IMG/VR virus record: IMGVR_UViG_3300037171_000150
Location: 1 to 64,000 of that record
Reading direction: 5' to 3' (one strand)
Length of the DNA stretch: 64,000 nucleotides
DNA from: a virus
Positions 7,248 through 59,672 of the stretch are shown here, in pieces. The notes under the pieces are model-generated. The model worked only from the letters and a program-made list of their open reading frames with translations, did no database searches and was not told the origin of the DNA. Made by a program: the position numbers and the translations under genes. The stretch's first letter is position 1. Every line of letters starts with the position of its first letter.

Positions 7248-7484
7248 TTAAACCCCTTTGATATTCTTCACTGCGTCCACAACCTGTCCAACCGTCATCG
7301 CCGCGGTGATCGCGCTGTCGGGGATTTCAATGTCAAACTCTTCTTCGAGATCCTGGGCAAGTTCGATCAGTTCGATACTGTCCAAGCCAAGATCGTTCAC
7401 CAATTCATTATCGTCCGTGACGCTTGCAATGTCAATACCAAAGTTGAAGAGAACGCTGCGTACTTGCTTTGAGATTGTGTCCAT
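7248..7484 (-). CDS. acyl carrier protein
   Basis: A 78-residue acyl carrier protein: a small acidic four-helix protein that carries acyl groups on phosphopantetheine. The attachment site is Ser36 in LGLDSIELIELAQDLEEEF, and the flanking residues match bacterial AcpP closely. The length is normal. The ATG at 7484 follows a GGGGG/TAAC region. It lies 1 base after the helicase stop and is probably co-transcribed with it. No acyl synthase or transferase partner is visible nearby, so it probably uses host enzymes or binds host ACP partners. Confidence 0.9.
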   Translation of the reverse strand: MDTISKQVRSVLFNFGIDIASVTDDNELVNDLGLDSIELIELAQDLEEEFDIEIPDSAITAAMTVGQVVDAVKNIKGV

Positions 7485-7485
7485 G

Positions 7486-8904
7486 TTACCCCCTTGCCAG
7501 ATTGTCAAACCTTGTTAGACTGCCTTCAAATGCCAACTTCACTACGTCGGTAGGGCCGTTGCGCTGCTTTGCGATGATAATCTCAGCCAGACCCTTCAAA
7601 TCTTGATTGTCCCTATCATAATACTCTGGCCTGTGGACAAAACAAATCACATCTCCATCTTGCTCAATTTGTCCGCTTTCACGAAGGTCCGACAAAACAG
7701 GCCTCTTGTCTTGGCGCTGTTCCGGTTGGCGATTAAGTTGCGCTAGAGCTACTACACAACAATCCAACTCTTTCGCCATCGCTTTCAATGACCTGGATAC
7801 ATGAGCGATCTCCTCTTGCCTGTTTCCAGTCTTTACGCCAGCCGCCATTAGCTGTAAATAGTCGCACACGGCCAAGTCAAGCCTTCCCTCGCGCTGCTTA
7901 AGCCGACGCGCCTTAGCTCTCATCTGGACTGGCGTCAAGGTAGGGGAGTCGTCGATGAAGATATGAGATTCAAGAAGATCATTCAACGCAACTCCTAGTT
8001 TACGCTTCTCCTCGCCGCTCAGGAACCATCCGTCCATCGCCCGCTTCACGTCAACCCGCGCCCTTGACGCCATAAAACGCCGCTCAATAGACGACCTTGA
8101 CATTTCCAATGAGAAGAATGCAGCCACTTTATCTGTTCCGCAGCAGACGTTCTCGATGAGGTTCATAGCTATGGCCGTCTTACCCATACTCGGCCGTCCA
8201 GCCCAAACCGTCAACTCTTGCTTCTGCAGCCCGCCAGTGAGCCGGTCGTAGTCAATGAACCCCGTTTGCAGCCCCGTCTTGAATTGCGGCTCGGTGTACG
8301 CCTTCAAATAGGGATCAAGACCCCCCGCGGCTTCGACCGACTGATAAATCGTCCGCAGTGCGCCAGCCTGGGCGTCTTGCGCGATCTCAAGGAGCTGGCC
8401 CTCGGCCTCTTCGAGTATCTCCAGCGCCGTCTCGCCCTGGTCAGCCGCGCGCGCAATGCCGGCGGAGAAGATCAGCATCATTTTGCGCAGGCGGCTCTTA
8501 TCGAGGACCAGCCGGATATACTCGCCGATCACCGGGCGCCGGGGAAGCCCCTCCGTCAAGCTGGCCAGGTACGCAATGCCGCCGATAGTGTCCCGTTCCT
8601 TATAACGGTCGAGCTCCGCAGAGAGCGTCACAATGTCTACCGCCTGGTTCGCGTCCACCAGTTCACTCATGCGCAGGAAGATGCGGCGATGAGAATCAAG
8701 TGAAAAGTCGTCCTCGGAGAGCTTTTCGGCGGCCTCGTTGAAGGCGGTTTGGTCGAGGAGAATCGCCCCGAGGATCGTCTTTTCAGCATACACATTCGCC
8801 GGCAACCCCTGGTCGAGCGCCAAGTCGGGAATACGCGCCTGCTTCCGCTCTGCCGGCGGCTCAGGCGCTTTGTCGGGAAGTTTGAAGTTTTGCAGGTCAG
8901 ACAC
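7486..8904 (-). CDS. dnaB: DnaB-type replicative DNA helicase
   Basis: A 472-residue hexameric replicative helicase that unwinds the fork for phage DNA synthesis. An N-terminal DnaB domain (about residues 35-135) is joined to a RecA-like motor with Walker A GRPSMGKTA (236-244) and a Walker B region LAVCDYLQLM, followed by QLNRQPEQR and LRESGQIEQD, typical DnaB motifs H3 and H4. Length matches bacterial DnaB. The GTG start has GAAAGG upstream. No separate primase was found in the window, so host DnaG may be recruited. Confidence 0.95.
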   Translation of the reverse strand: MSDLQNFKLPDKAPEPPAERKQARIPDLALDQGLPANVYAEKTILGAILLDQTAFNEAAEKLSEDDFSLDSHRRIFLRMSELVDANQAVDIVTLSAELDRYKERDTIGGIAYLASLTEGLPRRPVIGEYIRLVLDKSRLRKMMLIFSAGIARAADQGETALEILEEAEGQLLEIAQDAQAGALRTIYQSVEAAGGLDPYLKAYTEPQFKTGLQTGFIDYDRLTGGLQKQELTVWAGRPSMGKTAIAMNLIENVCCGTDKVAAFFSLEMSRSSIERRFMASRARVDVKRAMDGWFLSGEEKRKLGVALNDLLESHIFIDDSPTLTPVQMRAKARRLKQREGRLDLAVCDYLQLMAAGVKTGNRQEEIAHVSRSLKAMAKELDCCVVALAQLNRQPEQRQDKRPVLSDLRESGQIEQDGDVICFVHRPEYYDRDNQDLKGLAEIIIAKQRNGPTDVVKLAFEGSLTRFDNLARG

Positions 8905-8906
8905 GC

Positions 8907-10379
8907 TTACCTTTCAGATATTAGGATGTTTCGGATCTCAGAGATCGTCTGGAACTTCTGCATCTTCCCATCGCAAAACACAGGCTTCAACAAACCCTGT
9001 CTCTCCTGTTTGCGTGTTTGATGATCGTAGAGGACGTAGTGGCCATTCTCTTTCTCAACGCGAATCAATCCGCAGGCCGACTTCTTGACTCCATTATCCG
9101 TTTTCGGGTCTTTGAAGAGTTCCCGTTCTGTGCCATTAACGACTCCCCAGGTTGCCTTGATCGCTGTTCCGAACGTGTCTCGCGTGACGTGCTGGTAGGT
9201 GAAGCTGCCGACACCAAAAACGATATTTTCGCTGGAGAATCCGTCGCAATACAACCTCTCCAAGATGTCAGTGGCGCGCTCTAGGCTGATACTGTCCCCG
9301 TAAATCAATCCAACGTGAGAGTCAAGGGTTTTGTACCCTTTGCTTGTCTCGGTTCCGCCGAAGACTTCCCATAGAACTTGAACCGCCCCTTTGCGCGCAG
9401 GGCTTCCCTCTGGAGCAATGGGGTCGCCGCAGATGATATTGGCGGGGTCACCACTATCGGGCCGAAACACCACCTTGCCATCGCGAATCAATATCATCGA
9501 CTTCAATTCGCTGGCCGTCTCGGTGAGTACGTGCCAGAAATCCCAGGTGTCGCTCACGATGCTGACAATGCCGACAGGGTAGACTTCGGAAATCAGGCGG
9601 CGATATGTCTCCAGTTCTCCAGCTTCTCCACCCATGCACATTACGGAGTGCTCGGTAGCCGGTACGCTTCCACCAATGAAATTTCCATCTCCGTAATACT
9701 CCTCCACGTAGTCGATCGCTGAGATTGTGTCGGTTCCCGTGAAGCTCAACAGGTGACCGGCTCCGCTCTGCGAGGCGTCCGTAATTCCGCTCAATCCTCG
9801 AAAACTGAAATCGTGTCCCTGCCAGGAGATGTAATCTTTGTCGGCTCCCGTGGTCTCGGCATAACGTTCCAGCAAGCGGCGGTATTCGTGGGCAATAGTC
9901 GCACTGGTCATTTGCTTCCACAACTCCGCGCTGAGCTGCGTCTCCAGATAGTTCGTCACCCAGAAGAACTCCGGTATCGTGTTGACGATAGTCCACATCG
10001 GAACGCGCATATCAACCCGGCTTCCCTCTGGAAGAGATTTGATGAGAACCGGAAGGTATCCCAGGTCGTACAATGCCTCAATATGCCCAACACTCACAGC
10101 ACCGGGACCAAGCGAACTATCCATGCGCCGCTGGTACTTCTCTAAAACCCAGGATTTTGGCTTCTGGAAGAACTCGCGATTCCACAGGTCGATCAACAGC
10201 CACTGGCAGACGCCCTGCAAACCGAAGAAAACAACCTTGTGGTCAAAATCCGGCAGCACTTGAGCCCATCGATCGCTACGACATGTCCAGTTGGAGTACA
10301 CGTATTCTGTCCCTTCCGGGTACTGGCGAATATGCCCAGTCTTGTAGAAGTCTGTTGCGTGGGGCGGGAAAATATGCAC
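8907..10379 (-). CDS. nicotinamide phosphoribosyltransferase-like enzyme (NAMPT/Namat)
   Basis: A 490-residue NAMPT homologue. The family joins nicotinamide to PRPP to make NMN; the phage NARP1 version joins it to ADP-ribose pyrophosphate to make NAD+ directly. Key residues correspond to the human enzyme: Arg194 in FRGLSG, Asp217 in TGTDTIS, catalytic His244 in VPATEHS, and Arg306/Asp308 in FRPDSGDP. The second GTG at 10379 is chosen because AGGAG sits 7 bases before it; GTG 10385 overlaps that site. It is next to the Prs-like gene. Which donor it uses cannot be told from sequence by eye. Confidence 0.93.
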   Translation of the reverse strand: MHIFPPHATDFYKTGHIRQYPEGTEYVYSNWTCRSDRWAQVLPDFDHKVVFFGLQGVCQWLLIDLWNREFFQKPKSWVLEKYQRRMDSSLGPGAVSVGHIEALYDLGYLPVLIKSLPEGSRVDMRVPMWTIVNTIPEFFWVTNYLETQLSAELWKQMTSATIAHEYRRLLERYAETTGADKDYISWQGHDFSFRGLSGITDASQSGAGHLLSFTGTDTISAIDYVEEYYGDGNFIGGSVPATEHSVMCMGGEAGELETYRRLISEVYPVGIVSIVSDTWDFWHVLTETASELKSMILIRDGKVVFRPDSGDPANIICGDPIAPEGSPARKGAVQVLWEVFGGTETSKGYKTLDSHVGLIYGDSISLERATDILERLYCDGFSSENIVFGVGSFTYQHVTRDTFGTAIKATWGVVNGTERELFKDPKTDNGVKKSACGLIRVEKENGHYVLYDHQTRKQERQGLLKPVFCDGKMQKFQTISEIRNILISER

Positions 10380-10388
10380 TGTCACCTC

Positions 10389-11198
10389 CTAGATGACTGT
10401 CAAAAGTTTATGGTTGAGATCAACTCCAGGGAACGGGTTGGCCGTGTACACGCCGTCAATCAGCCCGTTGAACACATCCAATCCTTTGCTGAATATTCCG
10501 TGCGTGACGTAGAGGTAAATCTTTCCATTAGTCAGAGGACGGAGAACCTTTGCCAGTTCAATGAAAGTTCGACCACCATCGCAGATGTCGTCGGCAATCA
10601 GAAAGTCGCGGTCGCCAATATGTTCGGAGTAGACCACGGTTCCAGTAATCTCTCCCGTATCCGCGCTCCGGATCTTATCTGCTCTAACCATTGGCAGACC
10701 AAGTTCCTTTGCCGCTTCCAAAGTCTTCTTCATAGCCCCAGCGTCGGGGGCGACAAGCACCGTGTTGGTCCACGGTATTCGACGATAGAAGTGATGCTGC
10801 TTTTTGTTGTGGACGCGATCTAACAGCGCCAAAGAAACGTCGCTGTGAACATCCCAGACAATCACAATGGAAAATCCAAGACTATTGACGATGTCGCACA
10901 TTACCTTGAGCGCCAACGACTCGCCAGGGAAGCACACGCGGTCCTGCCGGGCATATGGCAGATAGGGACACTCCAAGGAGATAACTCCGAAATCGCCAAT
11001 CATCCTGCGCAGCGCGTCTGTGAGGAGCATCAGTTCGACCACATGGCTCGGCTCTGTCATGCTGGCCCGTATGGTGAACACTGGAGTCGTCTCTTCTTCG
11101 GTCACCTCAAGATTAATGCGCGGCTGAAGTTCCCCTCCAGAAAACTTGACCATCTGGTATGGATGCCTGTTTCCGTAGCTGTCAAAAATTTCAAACAT
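10389..11198 (-). CDS. ribose-phosphate pyrophosphokinase-like enzyme (Prs/Adps)
   Basis: A 269-residue Prs homologue, shorter than the usual 310. Prs transfers pyrophosphate from ATP to ribose 5-phosphate; the NARP1 relative Adps uses ADP-ribose. Visible motifs are PYLPYARQDR (78-87), WDVHSD (115-120), the flexible-loop VAPDAGAMKKT (149-159) and the PRPP-loop DDICDGGRT (203-211), which differs from the canonical DDxxxTGGT at several positions. That divergence may reflect a changed substrate. AAAGGG precedes the ATG. It is co-directional with the NAMPT-like gene, 9 bases apart. Confidence 0.92.
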   Translation of the reverse strand: MFEIFDSYGNRHPYQMVKFSGGELQPRINLEVTEEETTPVFTIRASMTEPSHVVELMLLTDALRRMIGDFGVISLECPYLPYARQDRVCFPGESLALKVMCDIVNSLGFSIVIVWDVHSDVSLALLDRVHNKKQHHFYRRIPWTNTVLVAPDAGAMKKTLEAAKELGLPMVRADKIRSADTGEITGTVVYSEHIGDRDFLIADDICDGGRTFIELAKVLRPLTNGKIYLYVTHGIFSKGLDVFNGLIDGVYTANPFPGVDLNHKLLTVI

Positions 11199-11212
11199 AG
11201 TGACCCTTTCTG

Positions 11213-11716
11213 CTAGTATTCCAATACTACGAGATCTTCGTTTTCCCGCTCACAGTCATCCCGATGCCAGAAACGAAAACTCAATCCGGGGTGCTGAGTT
11301 GCGATCTCAATATGAGTATCCTCGACATGGAAGCGGACGGACACTTGTAGTCCTTTGAATGAGTCCCACACCTTACGAATCAGAGTATGAAACGCCTGCG
11401 GTTGATGTAGCCCAACATTGACGGCATTCACTCCCCATTCCGCCAGATCTCCGGCAACCTGCGGCGTCATATGTGTCCCATTCGTGTAGAGAACAATGAA
11501 CTTTCCGCGCGCCTTCATACAAACTTCACGCACACGCTCAAGAAATAACAGAGGCTCCCCGCCTGAGATGCAGATCACTTTGTACTGCGAGAAGTCCAGA
11601 TGGTCCATCGTTGCCGGACGGATCGATGCGCGGATCTCCGGCAACGTGTCGTTGCAGCAGTACGAGCACTTCAGGTTGCATGTCCATGAGACGAGAATGC
11701 GGAGAGTGTCCTTCAC
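11213..11716 (-). CDS. small radical SAM protein
   Basis: A 167-residue radical SAM enzyme. CNLKCSYC (Cys13, 17, 20) is the [4Fe-4S] cluster motif and ISGGEPL (about 50-56) is the SAM-binding motif. The protein is little more than a partial TIM barrel, similar in size to activating enzymes or minimal radical SAM proteins. The GTG at 11716, with AAGG upstream, is chosen; longer in-frame starts read through the genes upstream. It lies directly before the Prs/NAMPT pair, in the same operon. Substrate unknown; a role in nicotinamide or nucleotide chemistry is only inference. Confidence 0.88.
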   Translation of the reverse strand: MKDTLRILVSWTCNLKCSYCCNDTLPEIRASIRPATMDHLDFSQYKVICISGGEPLLFLERVREVCMKARGKFIVLYTNGTHMTPQVAGDLAEWGVNAVNVGLHQPQAFHTLIRKVWDSFKGLQVSVRFHVEDTHIEIATQHPGLSFRFWHRDDCERENEDLVVLEY

Positions 11717-11718
11717 TT

Positions 11719-11844
11719 TTACCTTTCCAGTTGAATCACAATCCCAAAGCAGGGAACAGGCAGGATGTACACCCGGCGCTTCACGCGGTCGATGTACACC
11801 CCCACCCACAAATCGCAAGGCTCGAAGATGAAGTAGAACTTCAT
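11719..11844 (-). CDS. small hypothetical protein, 41 aa
   Basis: A 41-residue hydrophobic, aromatic-rich ORF beginning MKFYFIFEPCDLWVGVYIDR. Its ATG overlaps the KTSC gene's stop (ATGA) and its stop lies 2 bases before the radical SAM start. This tight spacing suggests a real coupled gene. It has about the size and composition of a single beta hairpin and resembles no family I know. Confidence 0.5.
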   Translation of the reverse strand: MKFYFIFEPCDLWVGVYIDRVKRRVYILPVPCFGIVIQLER

Positions 11845-12062
11845 CCGACCTTCGTGAAAGTATGCTGGCCTTTGATGTCGGAGTGAAGGAATTCCCCGTG
11901 GCTGTCGGCGTCGGCGAATGCCTGGGCTTTGTCTGCGGAAACTTGATCGTAGACATAAGTTCCGCCGTGGTGAAAGCGAACGGTCAGCTTCTGTGAATCC
12001 GCATCGTAAGCTGCCGAATGGATGTTCTTGGATTGCTTGAGATTGAGAACCTGCTCTGCCAT
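11841..12062 (-). CDS. KTSC domain protein
   Basis: A 73-residue protein that is essentially one KTSC domain: KNIHSAAYDADSQKLTVRF, then GGTYVYDQVSADKAQAF and GEFLHSDIKG. The family is named after conserved Lys, Thr, Ser and Cys residues, and its function is unproven. GGAGGT lies 5 bases before the ATG. A second, more divergent KTSC-like domain begins the protein at 13350-14798. Confidence 0.85.
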   Translation of the reverse strand: MAEQVLNLKQSKNIHSAAYDADSQKLTVRFHHGGTYVYDQVSADKAQAFADADSHGEFLHSDIKGQHTFTKVG

Positions 12063-22192: not shown

Positions 22193-25100
22193 CTAGAACC
22201 GGCTGGTCGTCTTGTGCCGCCGTCCGTGGTGCGACGGTTCAACCTTCTTCGGAGCCATGCCGGGGAGCAGGTTGGTGCCGACGACCTCTTCGGCGAGCAG
22301 GCGCTTGATGATGTTTTTACGCCGATCATCAACACTCAGTTTGTGCTTGCCGGTGTCGGCGGTCGTGTTCACCATATCCTCAGTGGCCGTGGAGAATGCC
22401 TCCATATCCTGACCGGGGATGCCCATGACCTGCGCGGCTACGTCTTTCGTCAAGCCATGCCGCCCTGCCAGTTTCGCGTGATCTTTGGCGTTGTGGGTAG
22501 CCATCGCCTGAAACAAGCTCGACGGGCCTTGCAGACCGATCGCCATGGTGTAGTTCGCCATCGCCCACCAGAGAGCCTCGGACGAGGCGGGGTGCGCCGC
22601 CAGCCATTCGTTCCTCCGTTTCTCGATCTCCGCTTCCGGCGATCCAACCAAGCGATGACGCTGGTAGATCAACTGGTTGAGCGCGAATCCGGCCAGGCCG
22701 GCATTGAACGCGAAGCGTAGCAGTTGCTTATAAGTGTCTGAACTCTTGAAGCCCTCTTCTTTCATCTCATCAAACACCCGGTCTCCAACTTGATTCGCCG
22801 TCTTAATCATGTACTGATGCAGCATCTGAGTGCAGCGGAATAGCGTGTTGAGGTGAATCATTGTAGGCGAAGCGTTCTTGTCTGGGCGGAAGATAGGCGG
22901 AAGCTCCGAAGCATATCCGCCGCCGACGATGTTGTTGGCGAGTCCAAGTTCCATGCGACGCACATCGTCTGGCCCGTAGCCGTTCTTGATGATGTTGTCG
23001 AGGTGCTCGTCAGAGAACCCCCACAGGTTTCTCAATTTCCTTCTGAGCGCGGTGTTGGTTGGATCTTTGACAAGCTCTGGATACGCGTATCTCTCGAAGA
23101 ACGCGCGCCCTGTCGCGGCAAGAAAGATGCGCGACATTTGAACCTCGAAGTTAAACCCATTGAAGCGCAAGAATTTATTACCAATACTCTCCCTCTTGAG
23201 CCCGATCTCTCGCATATAAGCGCTCTGCGTGTAGTCGAGTAGGGCGTTGCAATCCATCGCCCGCTGTACCAGTTCTTTCGGGTGTGTCATTCCACGCATA
23301 AGCCCAAAGAAGAGGCTCCTCGTGTTGGCGTCGGCTGTTGCTCTCCATATATGGGTTCCTACTTTAATAGGACTCCACAACATCTTGCCAGTAATGACGA
23401 TCGTGGAAGTCGTGCCGAGAACTTCCTTGTCCACCTCTGGAAGATGCACGGGGTCCATATCGCTCGTAAGGATGTGGTCGATAATAGACGCATCTCCATG
23501 AGAGAGTTTATTAAGAAGCGGTTCCGTCTTTTCGCGGAACTGGCCATGGACCTCGGTAGAAGCCAAAACAGATGATACTTGGTCAATGTAGCGTTCAATC
23601 GACCTCCGACCACGTTCATACAATGGAATATCAAACTCGCGCGCCCGCTCCGCATTTCCTTGTAGGCGAATGCCGCGGTCATTCTTATCGAAGAACGCTT
23701 GCGCCTTGTTCCTGGAAATGCCGTGCTCATCTGCAAACCTATCAACCAGTTTTTCCCGCTTAATATCAGCGGGGTCCATGTCCATTATTTCTCCGAGAGT
23801 ATGGCGCTCAACCTTTCCTGTCTCCGCATTGATGCTCTTATACTCTTTGTTCCAATCGTAAATCCGATGAAAGTAATACGGGTCGTCCTCGATGGCAGAG
23901 TATGGCCTATGCTTCTGCATCCCATCTTCAAAATACACAACGACGCTCCCGACACTAGCGAACGTGCGGCGAATGTCTCTCATAAGGTTGCGATACTCGA
24001 AAGCGGCATTGACGATGCGTTCTGGTATATCTGGCACCACTTTCAACATCTTGGCATCGTACACATACCCCGGCAGCGCTCGGTTCTCCACGACCCGCGA
24101 CATGGTTTCGATGTCTTTTTCGCTCAGTTTGTGGCCTTCTATGATCCCATGGAAAGCGGTCTGTAAACGTCCCTGATACCCTCCCTTCGTGAGAATCCAA
24201 TCCGTCCGACGCCGCCGCATTTCCTGGCCGTCTTCTTTCAAACCAGCGCGCCGGTAAACTTTCTCGATCACCCTATACCCGGAGGTGAAAACTGACCATC
24301 CGAGTTCTTGCGCAGCTTTTGCTTTTCTCTGTATGCTCTTTTTTCCATGATAAAGCGCATCTGAGTTGTCCATGAACAAACGGATGTCATTTGCCATATC
24401 CCGCGTCTTGCGAGTAGCCGCGTTCTCCGCCGACTCTCCAGACCCCATCGCGGCCCGGCCCGCCTCTTCCGCTTCCAGGCGAATGACGCCCTTGTTGGCG
24501 GTGACGGCGCGCGCCTCCGGCGCCGACAGTTTTTTGAGTTCACCAAAGAGTCCATCCCACGCGGCGCTGCCCAGGCGCTCGAAGGGATCTTCGTCCTTCG
24601 GGCCTTGGTAGAGTTTTTCGCCTTTCCCCTTATACTTCATGCCTTTGTTCTTGGCTTTGGCCGCGCTGGGAATCTCGACATCATCAATATGTGTGTAGCT
24701 GACTCCTTTGCCATCCTGCTCGAAGTCCGCGGCGTCCGGCTTCTCTTCGTCCTGCATAAAATCTCTCACTTCGGCAGGAATTCCAGCGGCGTCACGAAAC
24801 GCCTTAGACACATCCGATTCATACTTCTCGCCATAGACCGCCGCCTTCAAAGAGCGCATCCTGGGAAGAGTCTTTGTCGCCAGCGTTTTCATCTCGGGAA
24901 GCGAGTCTGATGTGAAGAAATACATGGCCACATTCGACTTCGATCCGTAGCGCCACGGTCTAGCTGTGCCTTGCTCCAGCATCACTGGAGACCACGGTAC
25001 GTCGATAAATAACGCCGCGCGAGGTTTGGTGCCTATTTTGTCTTGAGCGTTAGCCCCAATGGAACCAGCGGCAAAGCTCATATACATCGCATCTTTTTCA

Positions 25101-28100
25101 CCAGCCTGAAAAGCCTTCAGTTCACCTGCTCGAACCGCATTATGAGGACCGGCAAAGATAGCGATCTTGTCCCCAAAAGCCTCTCTCATCTTCTCTACCA
25201 CGTTTGGCAGAGGCGGCAGCATCTTGTTGATCTCCGCGCCCAGGCCGGCTGGCAATTCGTTAAAGAATTCCATCCCCTCCTCAGCCGGCGAGCGGTACTC
25301 GGTGAACATGATAGGCGACCACCCTTTTTCGGACAGATCCTTTGCCAATTTGATGACGTTCGGAAGCCTTGCCGCTGTCAAGTATCGCTTCAGATAGATC
25401 ACCTCATGCCCCTTGACAGGGGTAATGTATTTACTCATTCCCGCCTTCTGGAATGCGGCCCCCGCTTTGGCGAACGCGGCACGAATACTGCGCACTCCAG
25501 CGCGAACTTCTTCCGTCTGAGGAACGAGCGCTACGCGCGCCTCAACTCCAGTCATATCCTTATATAGCGTCTGCCACTGGCCGCGTTCGATAAGTTGCTG
25601 GCGCAATTTGGCTAGTTGCTCTGGCGTGGATCGGCTGCTGTATTCGTTTGGTCCGCTCTCGACCAATCCGAATTGCTTTGCCCATTGAGGGAATCCTCCT
25701 TTTGGCCACAAACCTAGTTTGTGCATATAGCCGATCTGCATGATCTTGGAGTATGGCGTGGCACTGGAGTAGACAACCTTCTTGGCGACATGGCCGAGAA
25801 GCGTTACAGCTTTCCCTTGCTCTGCTTCTTCCCAATTACTCGCCTCTGCGCTCTCGTCAAACAAGACGAAATCCCACGGTACGGATAGAACATCTTTGTC
25901 GCCCCTTATCGACGTATATGTTGTGGCGTACATACCCGTCTGCAGTTGCGACATATCGGATGGGAGATTATCCACATCAATTCCGAACTTGCGGGCTACG
26001 TCCATGTAGCCGTCATCATCCTCAATCAAGTTGCGACTTTTGGTTACAAGCAAACCGACCTTTTCGCCGCCATCTCCGAGAAGATGATGAGCTATGGCTG
26101 ACAGAAGCCATGTCTTTCCTGCCCCGGCTGGAGCGGCGAGGATTGTTGCGTCCTGATGTTGAAGAGCCGAGAGGGAGCCTTCGGCGGCCTCTGCCTGCCC
26201 TGGATAGATCATCATCTCGCGCACATCAGGGTCCAGCCGAACTGTAGGCGGCGGTGTTCCCTCCGGTAAGCCGAGAGCTTCTACGTGGCCGCGCCATACG
26301 TCAGGGTCTACCACAGGTGTCCCGCGAGGCTTCTTGGGAGCTTGAAGGCTTGCCGCCGGTACATCGCAAAGAGGATTCTTACTCGGCTCCGCTATCTTTC
26401 CTGTTTTTGTCTTTCTCGGAGAACTCTCCCCAAGCGAAACCGCCGTCGGATCACCGCGTACCTGCTGCACGGTCACAGCCTGCGCCGGGGTCGTCGGCTC
26501 ATCTAGCCGCGGCATCTCGCTGACGCCGTGAACAAGTTGGATGATGCTGGTATCCTTCGGCTCCGGCTTCCCGGCCCCAATAATACTGGTGGAGCCGCGC
26601 AGTTTATCTTCGATATTGTTCAACTGGCCGCGCAGTAACGCTCGACGTTCAGGGTTATTCTCCCGCTTCAAATCATCTTCAATCGACCTGGCCTTGCGTG
26701 CCAACTCGATCGTTTCGTTCAACCCAGGTTGACGCAACTTCATTGATAAGCTACCAACCCTTATGTATGTAGTCTCCTCTCCTTTAACTTTTAACATCTC
26801 ATAATATCCAATCTTTTTTGCATTTCTCTTGAGAAACGCCTTGGCGAGTTTTTCGTCAGTGAAAACCACATCCTGCGTCTTGCCGGACACGGGTCTGGCT
26901 GACTTCTCGATCACCTTCGCTTCTTTAGGAATTTCTACCTTGTCGGCGAACTCGGCAATAGCATCAATATCCACTCTCTTTATAAATGGTTTGCGCTCAG
27001 CCGTACTCCAATCATGCCATTCATCAAACATGGCATCAAGTTCTTTGTTCCCCGGACCATTCGCAAACGTGCGAACTGAATTATAAATGGACTGCATCGC
27101 CCGGCTTATATGGGCAAACACGCCCTCCATTTTCTTCGTACCCTCCGCGTTGCCGCGCTTGATTCCTCCGTCGTGATAGTAGTGAACAAACGCATCCGCG
27201 AATCTCTCTTCCTGCTCAGGTGACCACTCTCTTCCCTCTCCCGGAACAAAACCAACAAACTTGTTGGCGATGGCCTGGTATTCCGGTTTCATGAACCGGC
27301 GGATATTATGCGCCATCTCGTGAAGATAAGTTGAAGAGTCTGCTGTGTCGCACAAGTGAATCATCGCTTGCGCTTCGTTGAGCATCATAAAATATCCGCC
27401 GCTCTTTGGAGCTTCGGGATCTTCGCCGCCGAATACATAGGTTAATCTGCGGTTGCCGAGAATATCCTCCATGGATTCACCCAACGCCGTCGGGAGAATA
27501 TGCTCGAACATCTGCGTGATCTTCTCGGTAGTTTCGATGTCCTTATTGAGTTCTGGATGTGCTGCCAGCGCCTTGCGTAATTCCCTCACTGACCGCGGGC
27601 CTTCCGGCAGCGCCTCGACCACGCTCGACGAGTCCGGCTGTACATCGGCAATCACCGTCTCCGCGTGAACTTCTGCCTCAACCGGCAGCGGGCCGCGCGC
27701 ATCTTCGATCGCCGCCTTGACCGCTTCGGGCATCGGCGCAACCGCGCCCCACTCTTCGGGGATGACGCGCAGTGGGTTACCTTCGCCGTTCTTGAACTTT
27801 CCAGCGATCTCAGCATTAAACACGTCTGCCGGGTGTTCGGCACCAAACATAGACGGCTTTGTCCTATCGGCGTACTTCGCCAGCATCAACGCATATTCGC
27901 GCGGCGTCTGCTCAAGAGCCATCGCCATAGCGGTAACCGCGTCTGTCTCTGGGTGGCCTAAAGATTGACCGTCCGCAAAAGAGAATGAGTCGAGACTAAG
28001 ATCGCCCTGTTCTGCATTCAGACCGTTCTTATCCTCATAATTTCCAGTGTAGAGATACTTCTCAATCAGCGAAGAACTCCCTGCGCCTTTTGACGTTGCC

Positions 28101-31100
28101 TCCGAGGTTCCTCTAAGGCGGGACAGGCGATAGGACATTGCATCGGCTTTGGTATACAGCCGCACAGCGTCTGTGTTGTAAGACGCAAGATTCCAGTTTT
28201 CCCCGGCGCTCTTCGCTTTAACAAAGAACACTCCAGCCCTTGCTAACTTATTCTTCACGTCAGCGGGCGCGTCGGTGAGAACCTGCGGGTCAGTGACCGT
28301 CAACCCGATCAACATATTCTCTATCAAGTCTTTGGTTTTAGGTGTTAGATCCCCTTTACTCTCTCCATTTTGGACGATATATTCTGTCCGCTTGTTGGGC
28401 GCGATTATTCCTGCGTCCACTAGCAACTGAACAATATCAGAGGAGCGGGTTCGCATTGCTGTGCGCAACGAAATAGGATGTTCTCTTCCCTGCTTGTCTG
28501 TTTCGATGTGCGGCAACGACGAGAAAATGTTGTCGAGGCGGTCGAGATACTCTGGCGTGAGCAGCCTGGACATTGCCACGCCCTCTTCTTCCGCGCTCGA
28601 TCCTTTCATTGGATCACGGTTTGAGTCTTCGCCGAGCCTTGTCCACTCGATCTCGCTGGTAACAGGCTCATCCAAAAGCCTGTAAACGTCGTATGGTTCG
28701 CCTCCAAACTCTACATTCCCCGCGGCGTCCGAGAGGCCAAATCTGTCAATGCGCGTAGACCGGAAGTTCATCAACTTCTCATGCGCATCCGAATGAAGCA
28801 ATCTTGCCCTCTGCCGAATCATCTCCCGGCCATTGCCGCCGACAACTTCAAGGACTGTCGCGCTTCCATCTGCATCCGGACGCCACGCAACCACAGGCGG
28901 ACCGTCCATCGTAAGAGGAGTATCCGAGTATAGAATCCTGCCATCGGGGTTGGCACCGTTGACAGTCACGTCTGCCTGCGCCGATTTATCGGTGTCGTAA
29001 TGGCGCTTCTGGACCTTCTGGTCGTATCCTTCGGTTGGTTCAAAAGTGACAGGGTGGTGAGAGGTGCGCACAGCCTTCGAGGGAAGCAGGACGTAATGAG
29101 CCTTGAGGCCTTCTGGATGATTTGGGGTAACAATCTCCGTCACGCCGCCAAGAACAATCTTCGGACGAGGCCGACCATGAGGCGGTGGCGGAGCCGGATT
29201 TTGAACCGACTCCGCGCCCGCCACAACGGCTTCCGCCTTTTGTCGGACGAAATCCGCCGTCTGCCGTGCGGCATCAGCCGCGGCCGCTTGACCTTGCATA
29301 CGCAGGTCGTCTGCGGCTTGTTGCAGCTCGCTGGATTGAATGGAGAGTCGCGCCACCTGCTCGATTGCGGCGGGCCGCGCCTCTTCCGCGTTCTCCCTGA
29401 AACTGGCCGCAGTCCGCTCTGCCAGTTCCGTCGCGATGTGCGCCTGCGCCGCGGCGCGCACCTGGCGCATCCGAACCAGAAACTCATTGACCGCCGGCGT
29501 CCGCGTCCGTTCCGGCAATGCCTTCACATCTTTTTCGATCCTGAAAAGGTCTGCTGGTGAATGGACTTCCCCGAGGCCCATCTTCGACGCCTGCTCCGAA
29601 AGTCCCTTGCTAACTCGGCTCACCTCATCCAGCGACGGCGAGCGCCCGGTGTCCGAAGCCGTGATTGCCGACGCAAGTTCGCTGTGATGGCTGTCACGCT
29701 CCTCTGTGACCATGCGCGCGGCCAGGTCTTCGTCCATCAACCGGCGAATCGAATCGCGCTGGTCCATGCGTAGACTGGCGCGCTGCCGCATCAAGCCCGC
29801 CGCGTCCATATTTGCGATGTCGATGTGTTGGCCGGTACGCATCCGCTCGGTCAGGTCCACCGTTATAAACGAGTGAATCTTTTCCGGCTTCGTGCGCAGG
29901 TAGTCAGCCAGCGCCGGCGCGCGCATCTCGGCGGGGAGAGCGTCGAAAGATTTCCCGATGAATCGCTCGGTGTGCTCATTGAGGTCGCGGCTGGTTTCAG
30001 GGTCCGCCTTGAGCACGGAATCGATGTTGCTGCGGTTGAGGATGAGCTTGGCCGCGCCGGAGAAATCGTCCGCGCCCGGTGCCAGCGGCTGCTCGTCGCC
30101 CGTGGCATTGCGCTCCAGGTACTGCTTGACCGCGGCGTCGGCCATGTCCGCGTGCTTCACATCGGAAACGTGGCGCTCGTAGGCCGGGGTTCCTTTGAAG
30201 GCTTCCCATTGCTCGGGGTGATTCTTCTCCAGCCACGCGGCGGCGAGCTTCTGGCGATCGACAGGCAGCGAGGTGAAGGATTGGCCGAACTGCGCCTCTG
30301 TGCGCTCCTGGACGGCGCGCTCGGCGGCCGTGGTCTTGGCCTTGACTTCCGGTGTCGGCTCCCCGGAGGCTTTCGCTATCAAAGTCTTTCCGAGCTTGTT
30401 CCATTCCCTATTACGTTCCTGCCAATCCGTGGGCATGAAATCTACAACTTCTTGATGTATTCTGGCTGTGCCCCAGTCAGGGTTACGACGGGCCACATTG
30501 CCATAAATTCTCTGATACCGAGCATCATCCTTGGGATCAGTTAGTTCTTCTGGCGTGGGCTCTCCGGCAGCGGCGCGGCGGTCGACGACCGGGATGGCTG
30601 GTTCTGTTGGTACAGGTTCGTCTCTCTGCTCCGGTCCCGCCTCGCGCTCTGAGGTTTTTACGGTGGTTCGGCGTTCGAGGAGTTCCGGGTCTTCGCGATT
30701 CACTTCGACGTGAACCCCACCCTGCTCCTCGGCTGACGGAATGGTGTCGGCTTGGCGAGACTGCTCTTGCGCATCGGCGGCTTGCCGCGCGGCGTGCTCG
30801 CGCTGGGATGCGCCCTGTTTGAAGGCTTCGGAGCTTATGCCGCGCTCGATGATTTGGTTCAAAACTGTCTTAGCTGCCTGGAGTCGCGTATTTCTGTCAA
30901 CGACAGACTTCACCGCTTCATCTGCGAACGTCTTTGAGGCTCCGGCCTTTTTGCGCGCCTTTTGAATCTTACTAACTTCTCGATTTACTGTTTGCTTGAA
31001 ATCGAGATCTATGCACTCGGCTGCATCATAAAGGACAGCGGCTTTCTCGTGAGGTTTAAGTTTGGTAAACTTTTTCCCATAAAGATCAGAGGCACTTTTA

Positions 31101-32074
31101 TTCAAATCCTCCGTGTAGCGCCCTTCTGGACCGGCTTCCACGGCCTTGAATCCATAGTGCATACCGGCGAGAACAATCATGTTTCCAAGAACATCCCCCC
31201 ATGCGCCTTCTTCGTGCTTTGGATCACCCTCATCTGCATGAGCAACCGCGCGATAAGCACTTTCCGCCATCCCCTTCAATGCTGGTCCAAGAAAAGTTGC
31301 CTTCAAGGCCCATGCTGACGCTTGAGGACTCGCCAACATCTGACCGACTTTAGTCAATCCAACCTTTGATGCCGACACCCCTGCAACCCCCAAACCGTAC
31401 CCCATCAACGGCTCAAGGAAAGTTCCTCCAACCATCCATTCCAGTTGTGTCTTCGCCGATTCGGAACTGGTAAAAGCGCTAACAACATCCGATGCTCGCG
31501 TTATGTTTGGATGGGCGCGGCGCTGGTCTAAAGTCATCGCCGAAGATATGTTGATTGCTCCCTGTTGATTTTGATGGGTGAGTAAGTCTTCTGTGTCGCT
31601 GACAATCCCTAAAAGGGGGATCGCGGCCATTTTATTGAGAGGTTTCTCGTCTTGAACTTTTTGCGCAGCCTGATATTGCATATACTGCTCAGTGCTCATG
31701 TTTTCCAGTGTGCGTGCGCGCTCGTGAGAAAAAGATTCGCCGAATCCTAGATTCCGGCCAGCATATCCGGTCTTGAAGATATTTTTGGTTCTCTCCCACC
31801 CAGTAGGCTCCCACGCCGAAACCGTCACGTCAGCATGAGGGTGAATCTTGGCGGCTTGCTCATCATAATAGTTAGGAGTTGGCGCAGGCTGTGTGACAGT
31901 CTTCTGCATTTTCGCCAACTTGGAGTTCACGAGATCAGCGAACTTGTCTTTGCGACCGCCTTCAATCTTGCGAAGTTTCTTGTTTACGAGATCAGCGAAG
32001 GCATCTTTACCCTCACCACTCTGAGGTGCGGTGGGCGCGGGCGGAGTGGCGGTATTCGTCTGAGTGTCGGCCAT
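22193..32074 (-). CDS. giant polyvalent virion protein (DdrB/DarB-like, protease, SF2 helicase)
   Basis: A 3,293-residue protein, probably packaged in the head and injected with the DNA. In order: two short FADLVN repeats (25-55); a DdrB/ParB-like region (about 980-1250, including VLEVVGGNGREMIRQRARLL); a zinc-protease motif HEMAH (about 1586); an SF2 helicase like phage P1 DarB, with Walker A APAGAGKTW (about 1985), box II FDES (about 2073), SSATPY and motif VI ARPWRYG (about 2370); and about 900 helical residues with a hydrophobic stretch near 3128. The DNA methyltransferase part of DarB is not evident. Last gene of the late operon. Anti-restriction roles are inferred from DarB/DdrB. Confidence 0.85.
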   Translation of the reverse strand: MADTQTNTATPPAPTAPQSGEGKDAFADLVNKKLRKIEGGRKDKFADLVNSKLAKMQKTVTQPAPTPNYYDEQAAKIHPHADVTVSAWEPTGWERTKNIFKTGYAGRNLGFGESFSHERARTLENMSTEQYMQYQAAQKVQDEKPLNKMAAIPLLGIVSDTEDLLTHQNQQGAINISSAMTLDQRRAHPNITRASDVVSAFTSSESAKTQLEWMVGGTFLEPLMGYGLGVAGVSASKVGLTKVGQMLASPQASAWALKATFLGPALKGMAESAYRAVAHADEGDPKHEEGAWGDVLGNMIVLAGMHYGFKAVEAGPEGRYTEDLNKSASDLYGKKFTKLKPHEKAAVLYDAAECIDLDFKQTVNREVSKIQKARKKAGASKTFADEAVKSVVDRNTRLQAAKTVLNQIIERGISSEAFKQGASQREHAARQAADAQEQSRQADTIPSAEEQGGVHVEVNREDPELLERRTTVKTSEREAGPEQRDEPVPTEPAIPVVDRRAAAGEPTPEELTDPKDDARYQRIYGNVARRNPDWGTARIHQEVVDFMPTDWQERNREWNKLGKTLIAKASGEPTPEVKAKTTAAERAVQERTEAQFGQSFTSLPVDRQKLAAAWLEKNHPEQWEAFKGTPAYERHVSDVKHADMADAAVKQYLERNATGDEQPLAPGADDFSGAAKLILNRSNIDSVLKADPETSRDLNEHTERFIGKSFDALPAEMRAPALADYLRTKPEKIHSFITVDLTERMRTGQHIDIANMDAAGLMRQRASLRMDQRDSIRRLMDEDLAARMVTEERDSHHSELASAITASDTGRSPSLDEVSRVSKGLSEQASKMGLGEVHSPADLFRIEKDVKALPERTRTPAVNEFLVRMRQVRAAAQAHIATELAERTAASFRENAEEARPAAIEQVARLSIQSSELQQAADDLRMQGQAAAADAARQTADFVRQKAEAVVAGAESVQNPAPPPPHGRPRPKIVLGGVTEIVTPNHPEGLKAHYVLLPSKAVRTSHHPVTFEPTEGYDQKVQKRHYDTDKSAQADVTVNGANPDGRILYSDTPLTMDGPPVVAWRPDADGSATVLEVVGGNGREMIRQRARLLHSDAHEKLMNFRSTRIDRFGLSDAAGNVEFGGEPYDVYRLLDEPVTSEIEWTRLGEDSNRDPMKGSSAEEEGVAMSRLLTPEYLDRLDNIFSSLPHIETDKQGREHPISLRTAMRTRSSDIVQLLVDAGIIAPNKRTEYIVQNGESKGDLTPKTKDLIENMLIGLTVTDPQVLTDAPADVKNKLARAGVFFVKAKSAGENWNLASYNTDAVRLYTKADAMSYRLSRLRGTSEATSKGAGSSSLIEKYLYTGNYEDKNGLNAEQGDLSLDSFSFADGQSLGHPETDAVTAMAMALEQTPREYALMLAKYADRTKPSMFGAEHPADVFNAEIAGKFKNGEGNPLRVIPEEWGAVAPMPEAVKAAIEDARGPLPVEAEVHAETVIADVQPDSSSVVEALPEGPRSVRELRKALAAHPELNKDIETTEKITQMFEHILPTALGESMEDILGNRRLTYVFGGEDPEAPKSGGYFMMLNEAQAMIHLCDTADSSTYLHEMAHNIRRFMKPEYQAIANKFVGFVPGEGREWSPEQEERFADAFVHYYHDGGIKRGNAEGTKKMEGVFAHISRAMQSIYNSVRTFANGPGNKELDAMFDEWHDWSTAERKPFIKRVDIDAIAEFADKVEIPKEAKVIEKSARPVSGKTQDVVFTDEKLAKAFLKRNAKKIGYYEMLKVKGEETTYIRVGSLSMKLRQPGLNETIELARKARSIEDDLKRENNPERRALLRGQLNNIEDKLRGSTSIIGAGKPEPKDTSIIQLVHGVSEMPRLDEPTTPAQAVTVQQVRGDPTAVSLGESSPRKTKTGKIAEPSKNPLCDVPAASLQAPKKPRGTPVVDPDVWRGHVEALGLPEGTPPPTVRLDPDVREMMIYPGQAEAAEGSLSALQHQDATILAAPAGAGKTWLLSAIAHHLLGDGGEKVGLLVTKSRNLIEDDDGYMDVARKFGIDVDNLPSDMSQLQTGMYATTYTSIRGDKDVLSVPWDFVLFDESAEASNWEEAEQGKAVTLLGHVAKKVVYSSATPYSKIMQIGYMHKLGLWPKGGFPQWAKQFGLVESGPNEYSSRSTPEQLAKLRQQLIERGQWQTLYKDMTGVEARVALVPQTEEVRAGVRSIRAAFAKAGAAFQKAGMSKYITPVKGHEVIYLKRYLTAARLPNVIKLAKDLSEKGWSPIMFTEYRSPAEEGMEFFNELPAGLGAEINKMLPPLPNVVEKMREAFGDKIAIFAGPHNAVRAGELKAFQAGEKDAMYMSFAAGSIGANAQDKIGTKPRAALFIDVPWSPVMLEQGTARPWRYGSKSNVAMYFFTSDSLPEMKTLATKTLPRMRSLKAAVYGEKYESDVSKAFRDAAGIPAEVRDFMQDEEKPDAADFEQDGKGVSYTHIDDVEIPSAAKAKNKGMKYKGKGEKLYQGPKDEDPFERLGSAAWDGLFGELKKLSAPEARAVTANKGVIRLEAEEAGRAAMGSGESAENAATRKTRDMANDIRLFMDNSDALYHGKKSIQRKAKAAQELGWSVFTSGYRVIEKVYRRAGLKEDGQEMRRRRTDWILTKGGYQGRLQTAFHGIIEGHKLSEKDIETMSRVVENRALPGYVYDAKMLKVVPDIPERIVNAAFEYRNLMRDIRRTFASVGSVVVYFEDGMQKHRPYSAIEDDPYYFHRIYDWNKEYKSINAETGKVERHTLGEIMDMDPADIKREKLVDRFADEHGISRNKAQAFFDKNDRGIRLQGNAERAREFDIPLYERGRRSIERYIDQVSSVLASTEVHGQFREKTEPLLNKLSHGDASIIDHILTSDMDPVHLPEVDKEVLGTTSTIVITGKMLWSPIKVGTHIWRATADANTRSLFFGLMRGMTHPKELVQRAMDCNALLDYTQSAYMREIGLKRESIGNKFLRFNGFNFEVQMSRIFLAATGRAFFERYAYPELVKDPTNTALRRKLRNLWGFSDEHLDNIIKNGYGPDDVRRMELGLANNIVGGGYASELPPIFRPDKNASPTMIHLNTLFRCTQMLHQYMIKTANQVGDRVFDEMKEEGFKSSDTYKQLLRFAFNAGLAGFALNQLIYQRHRLVGSPEAEIEKRRNEWLAAHPASSEALWWAMANYTMAIGLQGPSSLFQAMATHNAKDHAKLAGRHGLTKDVAAQVMGIPGQDMEAFSTATEDMVNTTADTGKHKLSVDDRRKNIIKRLLAEEVVGTNLLPGMAPKKVEPSHHGRRHKTTSRF

Positions 32075-34989: not shown

Positions 34990-35934
34990 TTAAGCCGCCT
35001 TTCCGAGATATTGACGCTCGATACGTTTCAGCGCCGCTATCCGCATTTTAGCTTTGGCCTCTGGGGTATGGAGATGCCCTGGACGCCCCTTTTGTTTTTC
35101 CCCAAACTCTTTACGTTTCTCTGGAGTCCACGCCCTGCAGATTGATTCATTCCGTCTTTTGATAAGATCGGGGGACTGCAAAATTCCCCTAGCTCTCTCA
35201 TAGCGCTCTCTCATAATCTCGGAGCGCTCTTCGGCGGGGATCTTTGCCCAGCAGAGCCGTGCCGACTCCGCTAGAATAATTTTGTTTTCTTCTGTCAAGG
35301 GGTGTCCCGGACGCGGCTTCAATGCCCGCGAAGCCCTCTGACGTTTTGAGTGTTCCGCTCGGAGTTCAGGAGTCCACGCGGCGAGCATACCGGCCCTCAT
35401 CCTCTCTATTTGTTCAGGAGTTCTTTTTTTACCTAGACCTGGAGGGTTGGCGCGCATTGCAGCGGCGCGTTCCGCCGACACCGGCCTCCCTTTACGGATA
35501 GCTGATTGCTTATCTCGTGTCTCCTGGGAAACAAACTTACCAATCTGCGCGGATGAAATCTTCGCCCTCATCTCTGGAGTGCAAGGACGGCCCTTCATCC
35601 TCTCGCGGACTTCAGGCGTTGGAATACCGCTCTGGCCACCAAGCGTACTGTTGTACCCTACTCGCCGATTCGTACTGTTGAGACGCGCAATCCACTCCAT
35701 CTCTTTGCCAAGAAGTTCCTCATCTAAAAGAGCGTGGTCGATAACCTCAACCGTGAAGTTCTCGACCCCGTGTTTGCGCATGGCGTTATAGAGATAAGAG
35801 TCTCCCCGGCTACCCTTCTGTTTATTCCGGGCGCAATCCTTGTGCTGGCTCCATCGCCTACCGAGGACGCCGATGGTTTTTCCAATATAGATTTTGGAAT
35901 TCACCGTGTTCGTGATCTTGTAAATAACGCCCAC
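34990..35934 (-). CDS. GIY-YIG homing endonuclease with NUMOD3 repeats
   Basis: A 314-residue free-standing homing endonuclease. The catalytic domain (1-95) shows GVIYKITN and KIYIGKT, then GRRWSQHK with the catalytic Arg, and a Glu region DEELLGKEMEW. Residues 105-300 carry at least six Lys/Arg-rich NUMOD3-type DNA-binding repeats (GRPCTPEMRAKIS, GRPVSAERAAAMR, GHPLTEENKIILA). The second GTG at 35934 is chosen because AGGAG lies 8 bases upstream. It interrupts the virion genes as a mobile selfish gene. Confidence 0.9.
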   Translation of the reverse strand: MGVIYKITNTVNSKIYIGKTIGVLGRRWSQHKDCARNKQKGSRGDSYLYNAMRKHGVENFTVEVIDHALLDEELLGKEMEWIARLNSTNRRVGYNSTLGGQSGIPTPEVRERMKGRPCTPEMRAKISSAQIGKFVSQETRDKQSAIRKGRPVSAERAAAMRANPPGLGKKRTPEQIERMRAGMLAAWTPELRAEHSKRQRASRALKPRPGHPLTEENKIILAESARLCWAKIPAEERSEIMRERYERARGILQSPDLIKRRNESICRAWTPEKRKEFGEKQKGRPGHLHTPEAKAKMRIAALKRIERQYLGKAA

Positions 35935-36008
35935 GCAGCACACTCCTACGACGCAATGGTATCAGATTCAGCGCCGGGAGCGTGTCAGTTGCGGGAAGAA
36001 ATTTCTGA

Positions 36009-58988: not shown

Positions 58989-59672
58989 ATGCCAGCAAAC
59001 CTCGAGCTTCTAGCCGCAAGCCGCGTGATGGTCGACCAGGTGATCGCCCGCGGACAGGTTCCCGTCATGTTCTTTATGAACCGCGCAACCTCCCAGGCGC
59101 TCGCCGAGACGCTGGCCGCCGCCTACAGGGAGCGCTTGTCCACCTTCCGGCGGCTGTGGCTGCGAATCCAGCGCGGGAAGGCTGTGCCTCAACTGGAGTC
59201 CCTGCACGGCATCCCTGTGGGCCGGGCCGACTACCTGCCACCTGGGGGTTTGTTCCTACAGAGCGTGGACCGCGCTCAGATGGGCCAGCCAGCGGCGCCA
59301 GCAGTTCCAACGTCGATGAGACCACCTGCCGGCATGGAACAGGCCGCTCAAGACGCGCGGCAGCAGCTCGCGGCGCGGGGTGAGGAATTCTGGAAGAAGG
59401 ATCGCGTCCAGGCGCTGAACGACGCGATGGACGGCGTAGCGGCTGGCGAGATCCGGCCGACGCTGAACGACCTGTCGAGTGGGAACGGCGAGCGGCCGTC
59501 GGCGAGCGATGTGCTGATGAAGGCGATGGATGACGTGGATGATCTGAACGGCGTGGTGGTCGTGCGGGTCCATAGGAACGGGAGCGTAGACCTATGCCTC
59601 AATGTAGACCAGTTCGCCGCCCAGGGTGTGCTACAGCGCACGCAGATGTATTTGGCGCAGAGGGGTTACTGA
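58989..59672 (+). CDS. hypothetical protein, 227 aa
   Basis: A 227-residue protein. The N-terminal half is helical and basic (LAAAYRERLSTFRRLWLRIQ), the middle is Pro/Ala-rich, and the end is a small domain (DDVDDLNGVVVVRVHRNGSV, then LCLNVDQFAAQ). The ATG at 58989 has AAAGGAAA upstream; the longer in-frame start is less likely. It overlaps the next gene's start by 1 base (TGATG). No family recognised. Confidence 0.62.
   Translation: MPANLELLAASRVMVDQVIARGQVPVMFFMNRATSQALAETLAAAYRERLSTFRRLWLRIQRGKAVPQLESLHGIPVGRADYLPPGGLFLQSVDRAQMGQPAAPAVPTSMRPPAGMEQAAQDARQQLAARGEEFWKKDRVQALNDAMDGVAAGEIRPTLNDLSSGNGERPSASDVLMKAMDDVDDLNGVVVVRVHRNGSVDLCLNVDQFAAQGVLQRTQMYLAQRGY

What the first reader, a model, noticed from the sequence alone, without database searches (positions are those of the whole stretch)
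8907..11198. NARP1-like NAD+ rebuilding pair
NAMPT-like and Prs-like genes are adjacent and co-directional. In known phage NARP1, Prs-like Adps makes ADP-ribose pyrophosphate and NAMPT-like Namat joins it to nicotinamide, rebuilding NAD+ after an NADase defence. Here the nicotinamide-site residues (Arg194, Asp217, His244, Arg306, Asp308) are kept, while the Prs PRPP loop (DDICDGGRT) and length (269 aa) diverge from normal Prs, as expected for a changed substrate. No NMN adenylyltransferase is seen, which favours NARP1 over NARP2.
Basis: partly seen in the sequence, partly recalled or inferred. Interest (0 to 1): 0.82.

Follow-up and report, generated by a model that had tools for sequence, protein, structure and literature searches.

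The report
Phage NAD+-rebuilding gene pair (NARP1)
This phage genome carries a known two-enzyme pathway that phages use to rebuild the coenzyme NAD+ after bacteria destroy it as a defence; it sits in a three-gene insert that the closest phage relatives lack.

Summary
A Prs-like gene (10389-11198, minus) is followed after a few bases by a NAMPT-like gene (8907-10379 or 10385, minus), both intact, in a 65.6 kb virus record with no NMN adenylyltransferase match. The NARP1 interpretation is well supported. The NAMPT-like protein's best solved match is the crystallised SPbetaL1 Namat (553 bits, about 50% identical, TM 0.94), against 223 bits for human NAMPT. It has the published adenine "selectivity clamp": Arg in the loop and GSFTYQHVTRD in the helix, with the same Phe/His pair as the assayed DyoEdafos Namat. 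True NAMPTs have Gly/Ala and Lys/Glu/Gln there. The Prs-like protein keeps the diphosphokinase catalytic residues but has the DDICDGGRTF loop of Felixounavirus Adps, not the DDMIDTGGTL of Prs. Of 32 viral contigs with this Namat type, 31 also have Adps nearby, while almost no other window gene is shared with them.

New here: a near relative (flanks 88-98% identical on one side, 83% on the other) lacks the pair. The window's insert is about 2.8 kb, cut at gene boundaries, and holds a short radical-SAM gene plus adps plus namat. Eight other relatives held across this site also lack it. New member of a known kind; substrate use was not assayed.

The parts
8907..10385 (-). namat-like gene (nicotinamide ADP-ribose transferase); likelier start GTG at 10379 (490 aa)
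   Evidence: Best PDB match SPbetaL1 Namat 9w5x, 553 bits; fold match TM 0.94; Namat clan in tree
9177..9209 (-). Selectivity-clamp helix motif GSFTYQHVTRD (residues 393-403 of the 492-aa ORF)
   Evidence: Aligned to SPbetaL1 G390-D400; F and H at the adenine-stacking positions 392 and 396, as in DyoEdafos (PMC12774641)
10269..10271 (-). Arg39, equivalent of clamp-loop Arg40 of SPbetaL1 Namat
   Evidence: Alignment column
10389..11198 (-). adps-like gene (ADP-ribose pyrophosphate synthetase), 269 aa
   Evidence: PHROG 619 E 6e-78; Prs fold TM 0.8; loop and score range shared with known Adps
10563..10592 (-). Adps-type phosphate loop DDICDGGRTF
   Evidence: Identical in Felixounavirus; E. coli Prs has DDMIDTGGTL
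11213..11716 (-). Short radical-SAM gene (167 aa, CxxxCxxC) on the same insert; role unknown
   Evidence: Pfam Radical_SAM E 1e-12; start placed by junction with the empty-site relative
8905..11718 (.). About 2.8 kb insert (radical-SAM, adps, namat) absent from relatives
   Evidence: Relative L099 joins the flanks directly; eight further relatives have no such insert
7486..8904 (-). DnaB-type helicase gene, 3' flank of the insert (backbone gene)
   Evidence: Pfam DnaB_C E 3e-94; in relatives directly after the KTSC gene
11841..12062 (-). KTSC-domain gene, 5' flank of the insert (backbone gene); followed by a 124-base stretch with a possible 40-aa ORF
   Evidence: Conserved upstream of DnaB in relatives

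Best explanation
The pair is a NARP1 module. When a host NADase defence splits NAD+ into ADP-ribose and nicotinamide, Adps uses ATP to put a pyrophosphate on C1 of the free ribose of ADP-ribose (ADPR-PP). Namat then exchanges that pyrophosphate for nicotinamide, giving NAD+ in two steps, so that the infection goes on. Shown here: gene identity, catalytic residues, adenine clamp, tree position, pairing, and presence as an accessory insert. Inferred: the substrates, the reaction and the anti-defence effect.
For: (1) Namat-like protein: 553 bits to crystallised Namat against 427 HdNadV, 223 human NAMPT and 192 Xanthomonas NAMPT (names). (2) Clamp: Arg (loop), Ser-Phe...His, Thr-Arg-Asp. This matches the published signature GSX-phi-X-phi-X-phi-TRD except that position 7 is His rather than Tyr/Phe, and DyoEdafos Namat, assayed as NAD+-forming with its Adps, has the same Phe and His. 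(3) Control for the clamp: all 49 Namat-type proteins with an adps neighbour and a readable motif have Phe/Tyr at 392, and none has Arg/Lys/Glu/Gln at 396. Those without one (RB43, PVA23, Xanthomonas, rat, HdNadV, two Desulfotomaculaceae) have Arg/Lys/Glu/Gln at 396; the one exception, L026, is cut by a contig end. (4) The Adps-like protein keeps Prs R96, D98, H131, K194, R196, D220, D221, but the phosphate loop is Adps-type, and its score against the generic Prs model (126 bits) lies in the range of known or presumed Adps (82-126) and not of Prs (423). (5) Namat and Adps occur together in 31 of 32 viral contigs, almost without other window genes. (6) No NMNAT match in the record.
Against: No assay. 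Namat itself can also make NMN from PRPP in vitro (PMC12774641), so dual use is possible. An NMN-forming enzyme, HdNadV, lies in the same clan. His at clamp position 396 is the less common residue. The substrate determinants of Adps have not been solved, so the loop argument for Adps rests on family resemblance. The closest bacterial relative (Acinetobacter, 64%) sits beside a NadM-Nudix gene, as in a classical salvage operon.
Confidence: 0.87

Rival explanations
1. Ordinary salvage: the first protein is a PRPP synthetase feeding PRPP to an NMN-forming NAMPT, and the host's adenylyltransferase finishes NAD+ (a NARP2-like or plain metabolic role).
For: Database names (TIGR01251 just over cut-off, PRK09198) say so; HdNadV, an NMN-former (PMC6095924), is in the same clan; the Acinetobacter relative lies beside NadM-Nudix.
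Against: Clamp present and Prs loop changed; known or presumed Adps score in the same range on the Prs model; no NMNAT match in the record; true phage NAMPTs fetched here (RB43, PVA23) stand outside the clan and have no Adps/Prs neighbour.
Confidence: 0.1
2. Dual-use enzymes: the pair makes NAD+ from ADP-ribose after an attack, and PRPP/NMN for general nucleotide supply otherwise. (This overlaps with the best explanation rather than excluding it.)
For: SPbetaL1 Namat makes NMN from PRPP at about half the human rate (PMC12774641).
Against: The paper reports a strong preference for ADPR-PP; the Adps loop lacks the first Thr of Prs (DTGGT changed to DGGRT), which argues against good ribose-5-phosphate binding (inference).
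Confidence: 0.2
3. A three-gene unit: the radical-SAM protein that came with the pair is part of the anti-defence function, for example acting on a nucleotide signal or product.
For: Radical-SAM, adps and namat sit on one insert, with short gaps, same strand, similar G+C; phages do insert helper enzymes into NARP1 operons (RyDEP in DyoEdafos, PMC13232231).
Against: The radical-SAM gene was found beside no other adps/namat pair and has no close viral relative; it is unlike viperin beyond the core domain (25 bits against a 180 cut-off).
Confidence: 0.08

Closest known systems
NARP1 of Bacillus phage SPbetaL1 (Adps + Namat; PDB 9w5w, 9w5x)
   Same: Gene order adps then namat, catalytic core and clamp elements, fold (TM 0.94), about 50% identity for Namat
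   Different: Clamp Tyr396 is His; Adps loop is DDICDGGRTF against DDLSSFGGTF; phage unrelated; window insert has a radical-SAM gene
NARP1 of Mycobacterium phage DyoEdafos (gp77, gp79)
   Same: Clamp Phe/His identical (GSFTYQH-x-TRD); Adps loop DDICDGG-x-TF; pair lies near a DnaB helicase gene
   Different: DyoEdafos has the RyDEP glycosidase gene between the two; the window has none and instead a radical-SAM gene upstream
Felixounavirus adps/namat pair (the group to which, from memory, Escherichia phage Bas63 belongs)
   Same: Adps loop DDICDGGRTF identical; Namat clamp present
   Different: Longer Namat (593 aa) and an HNH gene between the two genes in the record read
Haemophilus ducreyi NadV (PDB 9ke8) and classical NAMPT
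   Same: NAM site and phosphoribosyltransferase chemistry
   Different: No adenine clamp (Ala, Gln, Arg; or Gly/Ala, Lys in NAMPT); make NMN from PRPP
Acinetobacter prs-nadV-nadM/Nudix operon
   Same: NadV 64% identical to the window protein, with a full clamp; Prs-like protein with Adps-type loop
   Different: Chromosomal, followed by an NMN adenylyltransferase/Nudix gene

Membership tests
NARP1 (Namat) | Homology to Namat rather than Nampt | tested here: met
   Tree split with SH-aLRT 100; 553 against 223 bits
NARP1 (Namat) | Helix signature GSX-phi-X-phi-X-phi-TRD with aromatic residues most often at the X positions, adenine contacts at positions 3 and 7 | tested here: met
   GSFTYQHVTRD; position 7 is His, as in the assayed DyoEdafos Namat
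NARP1 (Namat) | Clamp-loop stacking residue (Arg, or Lys/Tyr with the next residue) | tested here: met
   Arg39 aligned to Arg40
NARP1 (Namat) | Catalytic core (Phe189, Arg192, Asp215, His, Arg306, Asp308, Asp13, Tyr15) | tested here: met
   All identical
NARP1 (Adps) | Prs-like diphosphokinase next to namat | tested here: met
   Catalytic residues kept; genes adjacent
NARP1 (Adps) | Groups with known Adps apart from Prs | tested here: inconclusive
   Tree has only one Prs outgroup and weak inner support; profile scores and loop agree with Adps
NARP1 | NAD+ made from ADP-ribose, ATP and nicotinamide | not testable with these tools
   Needs enzyme assay
NARP1 | Protects phage or cells from NAD+-depleting defence | not testable with these tools
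   Needs infection or toxicity assay
NARP2 (Nampt + Nmnat) | Phage NMN adenylyltransferase | tested here: not met
   No PF01467 match in the 65.6 kb record; record may be incomplete
Classical NMN-forming NAMPT | Clamp positions Gly/Ala and Lys-type | tested here: not met
   Phe and His instead

The most novel reading that the evidence does not exclude
The insert is a three-gene extended NARP1 unit in which the short radical-SAM enzyme is a working partner, for example modifying a NAD-derived immune product or feeding ADP-ribose to Adps.
Probability: 0.08. Interest if true: 0.6.

Novelty: new member of a known kind. Interest (0 to 1): 0.33.

Why it matters
It adds an uncultivated, integrase-bearing phage lineage to the known spread of NARP1. 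It also gives a clean natural comparison: close phage relatives with and without the module, at a site where the module lies between two backbone genes. This supports NARP1 as exchangeable anti-defence cargo rather than housekeeping metabolism. The correlation between clamp and Adps partner gives a simple sequence rule for telling Namat from NadV, two enzymes that databases give the same name.

Tried and rejected
Clade membership alone as proof: rejected, because HdNadV falls in the same clan. RyDEP-like, Nudix or NMNAT helper in the record: none found. Radical-SAM gene as a viperin: rejected, 25 bits against a cut-off of 180, only the common core matches. Radical-SAM gene as a usual NARP1 neighbour: no counterpart in the fetched loci and no relative in viral contigs. 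The long radical-SAM ORF (11213-11956): rejected; its first 80 residues are read-through of a conserved backbone stretch, and the gene starts at 11716. The original NARP paper (Nature 2024) is not in the library, so features described only there were not tested.

Full report
What is there. The window is positions 1-64000 of a 65,611-base virus record with a tyrosine integrase, RecT, DnaB, portal, terminase and major head protein genes. On the minus strand, a 269-codon Prs-like gene (10389-11198) is followed by a NAMPT-like gene (8907-10385; the second GTG at 10379, just after AGGAGG, is the likelier start).

The NAMPT-like protein is a Namat. Its best solved matches are 9w5x/9w5w at 553 bits, which the fold library names as crystal structures of Namat. 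The residue numbers of that chain fit the SPbetaL1 Namat of PMC12774641, and its sequence is 100% identical to a protein of Bacillus phage SPbetaL1. An AlphaFold model of the window protein (mean pLDDT 92) superposes on it with TM 0.94, against 0.87 for human NAMPT. That paper assigns ADPR-PP selectivity to a clamp: a loop residue (Arg40) and a helix signature GSX-phi-X-phi-X-phi-TRD, with stacking residues 392 and 396. In the window the loop Arg is kept and the helix is GSFTYQHVTRD. His at 396 is less usual, but DyoEdafos Namat has the same Phe and His, and a preprint reports that this protein, with its Adps, turns ADP-ribose into NAD+ (PMC13232231).

A control for the clamp. Among fetched relatives with an adps neighbour, every readable motif (49 of 49) has Phe or Tyr at 392, and Tyr, Phe, His, Met or Cys at 396. 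The proteins without such a neighbour have Arg, Lys, Gln or Glu at 396, apart from one (L026) cut by a contig end. HdNadV (9ke8), which makes NMN in E. coli (PMC6095924), lies in the Namat clan of the tree but has Ala-Gln...Arg. So tree position alone would mislead; the clamp is the better evidence.

The Prs-like protein is an Adps. It keeps E. coli Prs residues R96, D98, H131, K194, R196, D220 and D221 and folds as a Prs (pLDDT 93; TM about 0.8 to E. coli Prs). The phosphate loop DTGGT has become DGGRT. The window loop DDICDGGRTF is identical in the Felixounavirus protein and close to that of DyoEdafos, while SPbetaL1 has yet another form. The window protein scores 126 bits on the generic Prs model, like Felixounavirus (125.5), SPbetaL1 (106) and DyoEdafos (82), and far from E. 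coli Prs (423). The Adps tree itself is weakly resolved and has one Prs outgroup only.

The pair travels as a unit. Of 32 viral contigs found with the window Namat, 31 have an Adps-type gene within about 2.5 kb, before or after it; the exception is cut by a contig end. Almost no other window gene is shared with them. The closest pair, L004 (78% and 64% identical), lies in a 106 kb contig with otherwise different genes.

An empty site. A search with the terminase found 37 related loci. Of 19 such phage records searched whole, none has adps or namat, although most are fragments. One, a 65 kb record (L099), matches the window at 88-98% on the side of the KTSC gene and at 83% on the DnaB side, and joins window position 11719 directly to about 8915. 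The DNA at the junctions shows that the window's extra 2.8 kb begins just after a spacer that precedes dnaB in the relative, and ends just before the dnaB start codon. Both junctions of the window carry GAAAGGTAA, a short shared sequence at a stop codon and ribosome-binding site. The insert holds three genes: a 167-aa radical-SAM protein, adps and namat. In eight other relatives held across the site the KTSC gene is followed by dnaB without these genes; one (L106) has a different small insert there. Gain in the window lineage is the simplest reading; loss in the others is not excluded.

The radical-SAM gene. It has a CxxxCxxC core and matches only the general family. It was found beside no other fetched pair and has no close viral relative. 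Whether it takes part in NAD+ repair is open; I think it more likely that it is a passenger.

Verdict. A NARP1 module, new member of a known kind, confidence 0.87. The mechanism (ADP-ribose plus ATP gives ADPR-PP; ADPR-PP plus nicotinamide gives NAD+) is inferred from family membership and residues. The interest lies in the accessory insert and the sequence rule, not in a new system.

Noticed in passing
L002:9105-12322: An Acinetobacter piece (filed as 'Acinetobacter phage MD-2021a', but with host-type genes around) has a Prs-like gene with DDICDGGAT loop, a NadV with the full Namat clamp (GSFTYNYLTRD), and NadM-Nudix: it may be an unrecognised bacterial NARP1 with a classical salvage gene beside it.
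   Followed up: partly
L052:1041-2555 and L054:3977-5482: Desulfotomaculaceae Namat-like proteins with Arg at clamp position 396 and no Adps found in the DNA held, like HdNadV: probably NMN-forming members of the Namat clan.
   Followed up: partly
L106:1680-2365: In another relative of this phage a different small insert occupies the same site between the KTSC gene and dnaB, so the site may be a cargo spot.
   Followed up: no
22193-32074: A 3293-codon ORF with a helicase-like stretch (AAA_34/ResIII) around residues 1950-2130; otherwise unmatched.
   Followed up: no
7248-7508: A phage acyl carrier protein gene directly after dnaB, kept in nearly all relatives read.
   Followed up: no
59594-60475: A PAPS-reductase-like gene on the plus strand, against the direction of most genes.
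   Followed up: no
34990-35943: A GIY-YIG/NUMOD3 homing-endonuclease gene, in the direction of its neighbours.
   Followed up: no
L019-L024, L028, L029, L031, L035, L041, L042: Many Namats are 560-600 aa, with an extra internal stretch absent from the window and SPbetaL1 proteins.
   Followed up: no
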